Shown here: positions 35,186-44,768 of the stretch, one piece after another
How the letters are laid out: each line of letters starts with the position of its first letter
Position numbering within the stretch: the stretch's first letter is position 1
NCBI RefSeq assembly: GCF_014208035.1
Contig: NZ_JACHMK010000001.1
Span: 806,001-870,000, forward strand
Direction of reading: 5' to 3'
Length of the DNA stretch: 64,000 bases
Source: Schaalia hyovaginalis
GTDB lineage: Bacteria > Actinomycetota > Actinomycetes > Actinomycetales > Actinomycetaceae
Notes under the pieces: generated by a model
The model's database searches: none
The model's input: only the letters and a program-made list of their open reading frames with translations
Told to the model about the DNA's origin: nothing
Position numbers and translations under genes: made by a program

Positions 35186-36757
<1,572 letters not shown>

Positions 36758-36817
36758 GTTTTTGAAACTCCGAACCCGTTGCGGCACAACGATTTTGCGG
36801 TTTTATATCTCTCTTTT

Positions 36818-36834
36818 GATAACGATTTGATAAC
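36818..36834 (+). repeat. Left-end arm-type repeat
   Basis: GATAACGATTTGATAAC recurs at 44638-44654 with one mismatch, near the opposite end of the element. These are candidate arm-type integrase or excisionase binding sites. Confidence 0.5.
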
Positions 36835-36925
36835 GCTCCCCATAGGCCGTATCATTCTGTATCCCCAGTGGATTGCGGGTAAAGAATGTTCTTTTGCGGC
36901 TTATAAGTGAGGACAACCATATTAG

Positions 36926-36962
36926 AAAGCCCTTACCGATGGCAACGTCGGTAAGGGCTTTT
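36926..36962 (-). terminator. Terminator of the element's regulator gene
   Basis: A perfect 14-bp stem (AAAGCCCTTACCGA and complement) with an 8-base loop and flanking T and A runs lies directly after the stop of the minus-strand regulator. It can act in both directions and may shield the element from guaA readthrough. Confidence 0.8.
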
Positions 36963-36967
36963 GCTGT

Positions 36968-37501
36968 CTATTCATCAGTATCGGGGCTATCTTTGAGTGC
37001 ATCCACCAGGAAATCACTCAATTCCTGTGAGGGAACTTTTGCCCACCGCAGGGTGGTGTCGTACTTGGGGTAGTTGTACCGCCAGCGGTCATAGTCCTCC
37101 CTGGTGATCTCCCCGGCCTCCAGCTTCTTGGCCTGCTCCGCCCAGGCGGACAGCATATCAAGCATATTGGCATAGGTCTTGCCTTTGGATTTGTCCAGAC
37201 GCAGACAAACCTCGCCGTCAATCTCCCCAATAGTCAGCCCCCGAATATCCTCCAAAGCAAAGAGGGTGTGCATCAGGCCGATGTCGGTATCTATGTCAGG
37301 GACGGTCAGGGCATCAGGGGAAATATCAAAGAAGTCAGCCAGGGTCTTTGTCAGGTCGGCCTTGGGGGTGCGGCTCCCGGTTTCATACTGTGCCATACGC
37401 ACATCGGCGGAGCGTTCCGGGAAACCCACCACCATGCCAAGATACTTCTGTGTGATGCCCTTCATGTTGCGGAAGAAACGAATACGTTCACCAATCGCCA
37501 T
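36968..37501 (-). CDS. Cro/CI (XRE)-family regulator
   Basis: A 177-residue protein with an N-terminal helix-turn-helix, IGERIRFFRNMKGITQKYLG followed by MAQYETGSRTPKADLTKTLA (residues about 3-56). The acidic C-terminal domain reads DIDTDIGLMHTLFALEDIRG early and DYDRWRYNYPKYDTTLRW near its end. The ATG at 37501 fits the domain start; an upstream in-frame start would cover the promoter. It is divergent from xis-int and lies at the left end, so it probably controls excision or mobilization. The domain combination is common in Firmicutes integrative elements. Confidence 0.88.
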   Translation of the reverse strand: MAIGERIRFFRNMKGITQKYLGMVVGFPERSADVRMAQYETGSRTPKADLTKTLADFFDISPDALTVPDIDTDIGLMHTLFALEDIRGLTIGEIDGEVCLRLDKSKGKTYANMLDMLSAWAEQAKKLEAGEITREDYDRWRYNYPKYDTTLRWAKVPSQELSDFLVDALKDSPDTDE

Positions 37502-37538
37502 AACTGCCAACTCCAATCTATGTAATGGGGACACTTGA

Positions 37539-37567
37539 AGTATAACAGATATGTTTAGACCAGTCAA
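37539..37567 (-). promoter_or_regulatory. Promoter of the element's regulator
   Basis: On the minus strand TTGACT (37567-37562) and TATACT (37544-37539) are 17 bases apart. Confidence 0.75.
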
Positions 37568-37611
37568 GAGAAAAATAAATAAATTTGTTTATATTTTCTC
37601 GTTGGAAGGTC

Positions 37612-37640
37612 TTGACATAACGGAATAGAGTTAGTATAGT
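37612..37640 (+). promoter_or_regulatory. Promoter of the xis-int operon
   Basis: TTGACA (37612-37617) and TATAGT (37635-37640) with 17 bases between, a near-consensus promoter. CGTTAA is repeated twice just downstream, a possible operator. AAGGAGG stands before xis. Confidence 0.8.
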
Positions 37641-37690
37641 AGGACTACGTTAAGCAAATAGCGTTAAATCAAAAGAAAGGAGGAATCCAT

Positions 37691-42337: not shown

Positions 42338-42369
42338 GCTGTCATCCTGATTTGAGGAGTCTATTCAAC

Positions 42370-42393
42370 ATGCGGCAAGGTATTCTTAAATAA
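42370..42393 (+). CDS. tet leader peptide MRQGILK
   Basis: A seven-codon reading frame with GAGGAG ten bases upstream. Its final codons lie in the first strand of the 42382-42461 hairpin, the layout expected for attenuation, where ribosome position decides whether the terminator forms. Confidence 0.6.
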   Translation: MRQGILK

Positions 42394-42461
42394 AATTTGA
42401 TAATGGGCACAAAAATAATTGCCCCTTGCAGGGGCTTGGTTTTTGTACCCAATTTAAGAAT
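42382..42461 (+). promoter_or_regulatory. Attenuator hairpins in the tet leader
   Basis: ATTCTTAAAT (42382-42391) pairs with ATTTAAGAAT (42452-42461). Inside it, a TGGGCACAAAAA/TTTTTGTACCCA stem (one mismatch) and a CCCCTTGCAGGGG hairpin are nested, followed by a T-run. Confidence 0.7.
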
Positions 42462-42540
42462 GCTTTTGCCTTTTTATCAAATATCGTGACGGATAACGGC
42501 TCATGTTAGCTGAATGCGTTTCTATGTATCCGAAGTCATG

Positions 42541-42577
42541 ATCCCCAGCGGTAAAAGTATTTGCCGCTGGGGATTTT
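42541..42577 (+). terminator. Leader terminator upstream of tet(W)
   Basis: ATCCCCAGCGGTAAA pairs with TTTGCCGCTGGGGAT (one G-U), followed by TTTTT. This is the classic terminator before ribosomal protection genes; tetracycline is thought to relieve it by changing leader translation. Confidence 0.85.
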
Positions 42578-42610
42578 TGCGCCCTTTTGGGCCTTGTATG
42601 GAGGATAGAC

Positions 42611-44530
42611 ATGAACATTATCAATATCGGGATTCTTGCCCATGTAGATGCGGGCAAGACGACACTGACAGAAAGCCTGCTGTATGCCAGCGGAACCATT
42701 TCAGAGCCGGGGAGCGTCGAAAAAGGGACAACGAGAACGGACACTATGTTTTTGGAGCGGCAGCGTGGAATTACCATTCAAACGGCAGTCACTTCTTTCC
42801 AGTGGCACAGTTGTAAAGTCAATATTGTGGATACTCCCGGCCACATGGATTTCTTGGCAGAGGTATACCGCTCTCTGGCTGTTTTGGACGGGGCCATCTT
42901 GGTGCTCTCCGCTAAAGATGGCGTGCAGGCCCAGACCCGTGTTCTGTTCCATGCCCTACGGAAATTGAACATCCCCACCATTATCTTTATCAACAAGATC
43001 GACCAGGTTGGCATTGATTTGGAGAGCGTATATCAGTCTGTTCGGGATAAGCTCTCCGCTGATATTATCATCAAGCAGACAGTGTCGCTGTCCTCGAAAA
43101 TAACTCTGACAGAAAACACTAGTGCAGAGGTGTGGGATTCGGTCATCGAAAATAACGATGAGTTATTGGCAAAGTATATCGCAGGAGAATCAATCAGTCA
43201 GAAAGAACTTGCGCAAGAAGAACAGCGGCGAGTTCAAGACGCCTCCCTGCTCCCGGTCTATCATGGTAGCGCCAAAAACGGCCTTGGCATTCAACAGTTG
43301 ATGGATGCGGTGATAGGGCTGTTCCAATCGACCAAGGAACAGGGGAGCGCCGCCCTGTGCGGTAGAGTTTTTAAGGTGGAGTATACAGATTGCGGCCAGA
43401 GGCTTGTCTATCTGCGGCTATACAGCGGAACGCTGCGTCTGCGGGATACGGTGGCCCTAGCCGGGAGAGAAAAGCTGAAAATCACAGAGATGCGTATTCC
43501 ATCCAAAGGGGAGATTGTTCGGACAGATACCGCCCATAAGGGCGAAATTGTCATCCTTCCCAGCGACAGCTTGAGATTAAACGATATATTGGGGGACAAA
43601 ACCCAACTTCCTCGTGAAATGTGGAGTGATGTTCCCTTCCCTATGCTGCGGACGACGATTACGCCAAAAACGGCAGAGCAAAGAGACCGGTTGCTGGACG
43701 CTCTTACGCAAATTGCGGATACTGACCCGCTTTTGCACTACGAGGTGGATTCCACCACCCATGAGATCATTCTTTCTTTTTTGGGTCGGATGCAGTTGGA
43801 GGTTGTTTCCGCTTTGCTGACGGAAAAATACAAGATTGAAACAGCAGTGAAGGAACCCACCGTCATTTATTTAGAGCGGCCGCTCAAAGTGGCCAGTCAC
43901 ACCATCCATATCGAGGTGCCGCCTAACCCGTTTTGGGCATCTATCGGACTGTCTGTTACACCGCTCCCGCTTGGCTCCGGTGTAAAATACGAGAGCCGGG
44001 TTTCCCTGGGATACCTGAACCAGAGTTTTCAAAACGCTGTCATGGATGGTATCCGTTACGGTTTGGGGCAAGGCTTGTGTGGCTGGAACGTAACGGACTG
44101 TAAGATTTGCTTTGAATACGGACTTTACTATAGCCCGGTCAGTACGCCGGCGGACTTCCGCTCATTGGCCCCGATTGTATTGGAACAGGCATTGAAGAAA
44201 TCTGGGACGCAGTTGCTGGAACCTTATCTCTCCTTCACCCTCTATGCGCCCCAGGAATACCTTTCCAGGGCTTATCATGATGCGCCGAAATACTGTGCCA
44301 CCATCGAAACGGCCCAGATAAAAAAGGATGAAGTTGTCTTTACTGGCGAGATTCCCGCCCGTTGCATACAGGCATACCGTACTGATTTGGCCTTTTACAC
44401 CAACGGGCGGAGTGTGTGCCTGACGGAACTGAAAGGGTATCAGGCCACTGTCGGCGAGCCAATCATCCAGCCCCGTCGTCCAAACAGCCGTTTGGATAAG
44501 GTGCGCCATATGTTCAGTAAGATTCCTTGA
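42611..44530 (+). CDS. tet(W): Tet(W)-type ribosomal protection protein (tetracycline resistance)
   Basis: A 639-residue EF-G-like GTPase that releases tetracycline from the ribosome. G motifs are AHVDAGKTT (10-18), DTPGHMDF and NKIDQ. The length and ends, from MNIINIGILAHVDAGKTT to RPNSRLDKVRHMFSKI, match Tet(W). Compared from memory with classical Tet(W), the middle part (about residues 160-270 and 350-380) differs at many positions while the C-terminal third is close, so this may be a divergent allele or a mosaic. ATG 42611 follows GGAGG; a start eight codons upstream is less likely. It is the only cargo resistance gene. Confidence 0.9.
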   Translation: MNIINIGILAHVDAGKTTLTESLLYASGTISEPGSVEKGTTRTDTMFLERQRGITIQTAVTSFQWHSCKVNIVDTPGHMDFLAEVYRSLAVLDGAILVLSAKDGVQAQTRVLFHALRKLNIPTIIFINKIDQVGIDLESVYQSVRDKLSADIIIKQTVSLSSKITLTENTSAEVWDSVIENNDELLAKYIAGESISQKELAQEEQRRVQDASLLPVYHGSAKNGLGIQQLMDAVIGLFQSTKEQGSAALCGRVFKVEYTDCGQRLVYLRLYSGTLRLRDTVALAGREKLKITEMRIPSKGEIVRTDTAHKGEIVILPSDSLRLNDILGDKTQLPREMWSDVPFPMLRTTITPKTAEQRDRLLDALTQIADTDPLLHYEVDSTTHEIILSFLGRMQLEVVSALLTEKYKIETAVKEPTVIYLERPLKVASHTIHIEVPPNPFWASIGLSVTPLPLGSGVKYESRVSLGYLNQSFQNAVMDGIRYGLGQGLCGWNVTDCKICFEYGLYYSPVSTPADFRSLAPIVLEQALKKSGTQLLEPYLSFTLYAPQEYLSRAYHDAPKYCATIETAQIKKDEVVFTGEIPARCIQAYRTDLAFYTNGRSVCLTELKGYQATVGEPIIQPRRPNSRLDKVRHMFSKIP

Positions 44531-44637
44531 TACGCCACAGCAAGGATGGTTATTGCATTTCCCTGCCTTTCGTGGTAAAATGTAGTTGTAAACCACCAGA
44601 GAAAACAACAACCCTGCTACCCCCCGTTATCACCACC

Positions 44638-44654
44638 GATAACAATTTGATAAC
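44638..44654 (+). repeat. Right-end arm-type repeat
   Basis: GATAACAATTTGATAAC is the counterpart of 36818-36834. A GTTATC just before it forms an inverted repeat with GATAAC. Confidence 0.5.
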
Positions 44655-44679
44655 AGCCCATCGTATAGGGCTGGATAAT

Positions 44680-44768
44680 ATGGACACATCAAATAATCAA
44701 AAAAATGAGGTATCAAATTTATGAAGCAAAATCCGTTAAATATGATGCCCAACAACGAGTGGGAGTAG
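44680..44768 (+). other. Two coupled mini reading frames at the right end of the element
   Basis: Frames of 14 codons (44680-44724) and 15 codons (44721-44768) overlap by ATGA. The second ends Asn-Glu-Trp-Glu-stop, its last codons being the attachment core shared with guaA. They may be chance frames. The rest of 44531-44755 shows only the repeats listed. Confidence 0.3.
44756..44766 (+). repeat. attR core
   Basis: Second copy of CGAGTGGGAGT. Host DNA resumes with AGGTCGAATCC, which implies that guaA originally ended in TAG. Confidence 0.88.

What the first reader, a model, noticed from the sequence alone, without database searches (positions are those of the whole stretch)
36745..44766. guaA-targeting mobilizable tet(W) element in an actinobacterial chromosome
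A compact island with integrase, xis, MobV relaxase, oriT and a single resistance gene is inserted in the 3' end of guaA, bounded by an 11-bp repeat. Its codon use points to Firmicutes. It links a gut/oral Firmicutes resistance pool with a high-GC actinobacterium, and no transfer apparatus is present, so it depends on helper elements.
Basis: partly seen in the sequence, partly recalled or inferred. Interest (0 to 1): 0.72.

Follow-up and report, generated by a model that had tools for sequence, protein, structure and literature searches.

The report
guaA-inserted mobilizable tet(W) element
A small, borrowed piece of DNA carrying a tetracycline-resistance gene sits at the end of a housekeeping gene in an actinobacterium, and almost letter-identical copies sit at the same gene in distant gut bacteria; elements of this kind are already known, but this one is unusually widely shared.

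Summary
Confirmed. Window 36745-44766 (8,022 bp) is a precise insertion in the 3' end of guaA, bounded by CGAGTGGGAGT. It carries an XRE-like regulator, Xis, tyrosine integrase, NikA-like accessory protein, AAA_25 ATPase, MobV relaxase and tet(W), a conserved candidate oriT and paired arm-type repeats. It has no transfer apparatus; its host genome holds two loci that might help. Complete copies differing by 4-6 substitutions occur in Subdoligranulum, Mitsuokella jalaludinii DSM 13811 and two MAGs; no element sequence was found beside guaA in 29 of 29 congeneric loci examined. Two additions: in Mitsuokella, Selenomonas and two MAGs the insertion apparently replaced the host's GuaA ending (EFE, EYE or DPDW) by the element's EWE, so 11-bp identity is not required; and the backbone is nearly clonal while its tet(W) allele has been exchanged. 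The kind is known: ATE-1 of Trueperella pyogenes is a tyrosine-integrase, MobV, tet(W) mobilizable element in guaA (PMC5704250, passages seen). This is a new member of that kind, shared by two phyla. Excision and transfer are inferred.

The parts
35186..36757 (+). guaA, glutamine-hydrolysing GMP synthase, host gene whose 3' end is the insertion site; the stop codon now comes from the element
   Evidence: NCBIfam PRK00074.1 762.3 bits over cut-off 400; attL and joined-flank reading
36745..44766 (.). whole element, 8,022 bp including both 11-bp repeats
   Evidence: repeat; GC shift; same two ends in complete copies L005, L014, L015, L082
36745..36755 (+). left repeat CGAGTGGGAGT (attL)
36818..36834 (+). 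left arm-type repeat GATAACGATTTGATAAC, probable integrase arm site
   Evidence: 2 sites in 64 kb allowing 3 mismatches, expected 0.02; function inferred
36968..37567 (-). XRE-like regulator
   Evidence: HTH_19 27.6 bits, under its cut-off of 30.2
37691..37879 (+). excisionase (Xis), 62 aa
   Evidence: ICEBs1 Xis model 54.6 bits, below its cut-off of 100
37880..38956 (+). tyrosine integrase, 358 aa
   Evidence: Phage_int_SAM_3, Phage_integrase and Arm-DNA-bind_4 over cut-off
38956..39276 (+). NikA-like relaxosome accessory protein
   Evidence: PF21983 49 bits over cut-off 27
39281..40438 (+). AAA_25 ATPase, possibly for replication of the excised circle
   Evidence: PF13481 103.6 bits over cut-off 27; role inferred
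40424..40518 (.). inverted repeat with 26-nt arms of TGACG motifs at the end of the ATPase gene, possible binding site or origin
   Evidence: 88% complementary; similar in relatives; role inferred
40628..40700 (+). candidate oriT: hairpin, nic-like stretch, second hairpin
   Evidence: conserved among 8 distinct intergenic sequences, the most distant from a 61% identical MobV; fold of 40628-40712 z-score -3.82; likeness of the nic stretch to pMV158 is recalled
40753..42102 (+). MobV (Mob_Pre) relaxase, 449 aa
   Evidence: PF01076 106.2 bits over cut-off 25.5; NCBIfam MobV 41.6 bits, below its cut-off of 100
42126..42185 (+). 19-codon frame resembling the start of a 124-aa ORF in relative L031; may mark the cargo slot
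   Evidence: the name TnpV for the longer ORF is recalled
42370..42393 (+). short leader frame MRQGILK before tet(W), with a nearby stem
   Evidence: repeat I21; attenuation role recalled from tet(M)
42611..44530 (+). tet(W) ribosomal protection protein, 639 aa
   Evidence: NCBIfam tet_protect_M_W 1267.7 bits over cut-off 1100; the gene of 100% identical copy H1 is annotated tet(W)
44638..44654 (+). right arm-type repeat GATAACAATTTGATAAC
   Evidence: the surrounding right end is kept in several relatives
44756..44766 (+). right repeat CGAGTGGGAGT (attR)

Best explanation
An 8.0-kb integrative and mobilizable element (IME). Shown by sequence: the tyrosine-integrase module sits beside guaA, the element is inserted in the last codons of guaA and supplies the stop codon, and near-identical copies occupy guaA in Clostridia and Negativicutes. 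Inferred: Int and Xis excise it as a circle by joining the two ends; MobV and the NikA-like protein nick at the oriT between the ATPase gene and mobV; a helper type IV system carries the strand across; and Int inserts it at the guaA end of the recipient. tet(W) sits in an exchangeable cargo slot at the right end. Because the target encodes a widely shared GuaA C-terminus and mismatches are tolerated, a suitable site exists in very distant hosts.
For: Exact ends and repeat; gene content; conserved oriT candidate; arm repeats. Complete copies with 4-6 substitutions in about 8 kb: L082, L005, L014, L015. In the Subdoligranulum record two tandem copies abut, so their junction has the sequence expected of a closed circle. 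No element sequence beside guaA in 29 of 29 other congeneric loci examined. Joined flanks read as GuaA endings, and 113 of the best 120 relatives of the Mitsuokella GuaA end EFE while the carrier now ends EWE. Possible helpers in the same genome.
Against: No excision, nicking or transfer was observed. XRE and Xis matches are below curated cut-offs. The window copy has 4 substitutions absent from the four complete copies compared, one inside the otherwise conserved oriT block, effect unknown. Of 80 integrase loci, 24 with enough upstream sequence had no guaA directly upstream; 16 of those 24 have another related mobile or guaA piece further upstream, as in arrays, and 8 do not. L003 and L010, which carry complete closely related elements, are among the 8.
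Confidence: 0.9

Rival explanations
1. The element is a defective resident in this strain: it arrived by transfer but can no longer excise or be mobilized.
For: Four substitutions absent from the four complete copies compared, one within the conserved oriT candidate block.
Against: The genes named here are open frames and both ends are present; the differences are few.
Confidence: 0.2
2. The actinobacterial copy is contamination or misassembly from a gut Firmicute.
For: The copy is nearly identical to those of Bacillota, and many carriers found are MAG contigs.
Against: It lies inside a 2.63-Mb contig of a 2-contig genome rated 100% complete and 0.79% contaminated; guaA on the left matches the genus and the right side is high in GC; divergent syntenic relatives occur in other genomes of the family and phylum.
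Confidence: 0.03
3. The unit of transfer is not this element: tet(W) moved alone, for example from an IME_Rho_tet, into an older resident guaA island.
For: tet(W) alleles differ between otherwise clonal backbones; most gut tet(W) is tied to IME_Rho_tet (PMC12904643, abstract and parts 2-4 of 6 read).
Against: Backbone, tet(W) and both ends are near-identical together across hosts; recombinase type differs from IME_Rho_tet; 29 of 29 congeneric loci examined lack the backbone.
Confidence: 0.05

Closest known systems
ATE-1 of Trueperella (Arcanobacterium) pyogenes
   Same: tyrosine integrase, 3' end of guaA, MobV relaxase, tet(W), actinobacterial host; listed as mobilized by IncP plasmids (PMC5704250, passages seen). 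That Trueperella belongs to the Actinomycetaceae, the likely family of this host, is recalled
   Different: 10.8 kb with a toxin-antitoxin pair and 3 unknown genes against 8.0 kb; described from T. pyogenes in the passages seen. Its sequence was not held, so identity was not tested; the published ATE-1 marker primers found no site in any held locus
IME_Rho_tet
   Same: small relaxase-bearing mobilizable element spreading tet(W) among gut Bacillota (PMC12904643, abstract and parts 2-4 of 6 read)
   Different: serine recombinase, terminal inverted repeats, often in maff2 genes; complete tet(W) copies found only in Bacillota; the paper finds no trace of it in ATE-1 beyond tet(W)
Tn5801 and Tn5801-like islands
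   Same: tyrosine recombinase, 3' end of guaA, 11-bp direct repeats, tetracycline resistance, Gram-positive hosts (PMC4844618, passages seen)
   Different: 25 kb, tet(M), conjugation genes of Tn916 type, no xis-like gene
GIsul2
   Same: guaA 3' end at GAGTGGGA, probably an IME (PMC9376610, passages seen)
   Different: about 15 kb, sul2, Gram-negative hosts; gene set not compared here
Streptococcal guaA IMEs (Tyr_3 family)
   Same: tyrosine integrases for guaA (PMC5357655, passages seen)
   Different: in that survey's table MobV goes with tyrosine integrases only together with MobT

Membership tests
integrative and mobilizable element (canonical IME) | own integrase and defined attachment ends | tested here: met
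integrative and mobilizable element (canonical IME) | own relaxase, no mating-pore or coupling-protein genes | tested here: met
   MobV; no mating-pore or coupling family among the seven element proteins scanned; small frames were not scanned
integrative and mobilizable element (canonical IME) | functional oriT | tested here: inconclusive
   conserved, folded candidate; function not testable here
integrative and mobilizable element (canonical IME) | excises and is transferred by a helper | not testable with these tools
   tandem junction and distribution are indirect support
ATE-1 | guaA 3' end, tyrosine integrase, MobV, tet(W) | tested here: met
   ATE-1 features from PMC5704250
ATE-1 | 10.8 kb with toxin-antitoxin genes | tested here: not met
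   8.0 kb; no toxin-antitoxin family among the seven element proteins scanned
ATE-1 | sequence identity to ATE-1 (AY049983) | not testable with these tools
   the 2002 paper (PMC127165) was not held and a guessed DOI found nothing; marker primers gave no site in held loci
IME_Rho_tet | serine recombinase | tested here: not met
   tyrosine integrase
Tn5801 | Tn916-type conjugation genes and tet(M) | tested here: not met
   (Tet(M) model 1061.6 bits, under its cut-off of 1420)

The most novel reading that the evidence does not exclude
One nearly clonal 8-kb mobilizable element has crossed between gut Bacillota (Clostridia and Negativicutes) and Actinomycetota very recently. Target choice does not limit its host range: its integrase needs only a few bases of the guaA end, and by inserting it overwrites the host's GuaA C-terminal residues with its own EWE version and keeps this enzyme in frame.
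Probability: 0.6. Interest if true: 0.5.

Novelty: new member of a known kind. Interest (0 to 1): 0.42.

Why it matters
The main published carrier of gut tet(W), IME_Rho_tet, is complete with tet(W) only in Bacillota, and its authors suggest that ATE-1 or related elements, or intrinsic genes, account for much tet(W) in Actinomycetota (PMC12904643, parts read). This element is a concrete vehicle found in both phyla at 4-6 substitutions per 8 kb. It also makes a mechanism testable: how a guaA-specific integrase tolerates host differences while keeping the gene's ending intact.

Tried and rejected
Rfam gave no match at gathering scores in 34000-48000. Spread to Bacteroidota, Smithella or Kiritimatiellota was not adopted: the carriers (L009, L012, L017, L018) are MAG contigs, three of them with flanks of 173-618 bp; L012's flank matches Selenomonas loci at 73-75%, L018's matches a Clostridiales MAG at 77%, L009's matches L082 at 72% and L017's matched nothing, so none settles the host. 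The published ATE-1 marker primers were tried on the held loci; no site was found. The Forster et al. paper on broad-host-range elements (PMC8931123, passages seen) holds no mention of 'tet W', 'tetW' or guaA in its main text. (plasmids, phages): one plasmid-collection record holds the whole element; the other 18 plasmid and 2 phage records match only in or around tet(W). L004 and the more distant loci L022 onwards were left out of the alignment. The oriT alignment has 9 rows after removal of identical sequences, one of them (L145) the host's own copy again, so 8 distinct sequences; several are close relatives of each other.
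Full report
Observation. The repeat CGAGTGGGAGT occurs exactly twice in the window, at 36745-36755 and 44756-44766, against 0.04 expected, and 0 of 100 shuffles had two. Between them GC falls to 0.45-0.63, from about 0.70 on the guaA side and about 0.64 on the other. GC3 is 0.58-0.79 in the seven island genes against 0.94 in guaA, though three genes to the right have only 0.79-0.84. guaA is open and ends across the left repeat. The window is C1:806001-870000 of a 2-contig genome of 2.65 Mb, rated 100% complete with 0.79% contamination. The few named proteins among the best 120 GuaA relatives are from Schaalia and Actinomyces at 91-92% identity, so the host is taken as an actinobacterium of that group (inference).

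Contents. Left to right: XRE-like regulator, Xis, tyrosine integrase with arm-binding domain, NikA-like accessory protein, AAA_25 ATPase, MobV relaxase and tet(W) (the regulator and Xis score below curated cut-offs). Between the ATPase gene and mobV lies a block that folds better than all 200 shuffles (z -3.82) and is kept among 8 distinct sequences, the most distant from a relative whose MobV is 61% identical; it is the best oriT candidate. Paired repeats GATAACRATTTGATAAC lie 63-79 bp inward of the left repeat and 102-118 bp inward of the right one (expected 0.02), as arm sites of an integrase would.

Distribution. A scan of genome contigs for the integrase kept 80 loci out of 450 confirmed relatives. 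Twenty of these loci and the Subdoligranulum record were aligned with the element. Complete copies with 4-6 substitutions: L082 (Subdoligranulum, 4 in 8,021), L005 (MAG, 5 in 8,014), L014 (Mitsuokella jalaludinii DSM 13811, 6 in 8,014), L015 (MAG, 6 in 8,022). Seven partial copies (L002, L006, L008, L009, L011, L016, L017) show 3-5 substitutions over the part held. The other ten of the 21 differ more, in stretches (44-490 substitutions). The window has four substitutions absent from L005, L014, L015 and L082. The Subdoligranulum record is filed as a plasmid but carries guaA, so it may be chromosomal.

Empty sites. All 35 genomes of the genus gave a match to GuaA, one (G008, 70% complete) only a weak partial one. 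Loci were taken for 30, including the host. Element sequence was found beside guaA only in the host: 29 of 29 others lack it over about 1.5 kb beyond guaA (260 bp in L105 and about 650 bp in L112); five genomes were not examined. In 200 genomes of the family the MobV had 3 carriers: the host, G444 at 93% and G448 at 86%. G444 has the same gene order at guaA with tet(W) at 94% protein identity; G272, of another family in the phylum, has a more distant version at guaA with tet(W) at 89% and a different relaxase. In 396 genomes of the phylum the integrase had 9 carriers at E <= 1e-60, the host included.

The site. In ten copies the two flanks were joined to read the empty site. In the window both read EWE, so the 11-bp identity partly reflects that host and element share the same codons. 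In Mitsuokella and Selenomonas bovis DSM 23594 the right flank carries an EFE ending, in L015 EYE and in L005 DPDW, yet all four GuaA proteins now end EWE. Among the best 120 of 7,995 relatives of the Mitsuokella GuaA, 113 end EFE, 4 ELE and 3 EWE. In these four copies 2-5 of the 11 core bases differ between the ends, so insertion appears to rewrite the enzyme's last residues. Against a strict guaA rule: of 80 loci, 53 have guaA directly upstream, 3 are too short, 24 do not; of those 24, 16 have another related mobile or guaA piece further upstream, which fits arrays, and 8, L003 and L010 among them, are unexplained.

Mosaicism. L003, L013 and L030 match the backbone almost perfectly, while nearly all of their 204-210 substitutions fall in the tet(W) end; L021 shows the reverse, nearly the same tet(W) with a divergent left half; L010 has a hybrid tet(W). 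The backbone seems to spread clonally while the resistance allele is exchanged by recombination (inference).

Helper. No mating-pore or coupling family was found among the seven element proteins scanned. The 21.3-kb second contig of the genome encodes a MobA/VirD2-like relaxase (PF03432), a T4SS coupling protein (PF02534), a TraG P-loop ATPase and a SLT/NlpC-P60 protein. The chromosome at about 1.931-1.943 Mb encodes TcpC-like, AAA_10 and TraG/TrwB-type proteins. The VirB4 and VirD4 roles are recalled from these families. Either locus might serve; compatibility is untested.

Known kinds. A review lists ATE-1 of Trueperella pyogenes as tyrosine integrase, 3' end of guaA, MobV, tet(W), 10.8 kb, with a toxin-antitoxin pair, mobilized by IncP plasmids (PMC5704250, passages seen). 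IME_Rho_tet is a different, serine-recombinase element whose complete tet(W) copies were found only in Bacillota, and ATE-1 shows no trace of it beyond tet(W) (PMC12904643, abstract, passages and parts 2-4 of 6). Tn5801 uses guaA with 11-bp repeats too (PMC4844618, passages seen). The present element fits the ATE-1 kind in parts and site; descent could not be tested because the ATE-1 sequence was not held.

Verdict. The observation and interpretation stand. It is a new member of a known kind, with a wide, recent spread across two phyla and a neat target mechanism.

Noticed in passing
L069:6541-15212 (also L070, L071, L072, L074, L077, L078, L079; L080 partial): A second clonal guaA element of 8.67 kb with a MobV relaxase, an ABC-F-like gene and a lincosamide nucleotidyltransferase-like gene (both below curated cut-offs), 0-1 mismatches across eight records including Levyella, Blautia, Ruminococcus bromii, Butyribacter and Pseudoramibacter.
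   Followed up: partly
L129:12872-13810, L130:7266-8204, L082:5002-6012: Extra guaA C-terminal-half genes lie 0.4-5.4 kb beyond the full guaA, perhaps carried by islands as a portable guaA end.
   Followed up: no
44813-45927: AbiEi-like antitoxin gene (PF13338) right after the element; the frame that starts behind it stops after 25 codons. That a partner toxin gene is usual there is recalled.
   Followed up: partly
44767-49600: None of nine congener stretches (L127-L135) had a listed match of 120 bp or more here; in G004 the match after guaA resumes at window 49648. It may be another island or remnant at the same hotspot.
   Followed up: no
L136 (host contig C2, 21.3 kb): Looks like a conjugative plasmid: PF03432 relaxase, NikA/MobC-like, T4SS coupling protein, TraG P-loop ATPase, SLT/NlpC-P60, ParA-like.
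   Followed up: partly
L003, L010, L013, L021, right of the element: A second related element (66-73% identical stretches) begins within about 0.8 kb, so these elements form arrays.
   Followed up: no
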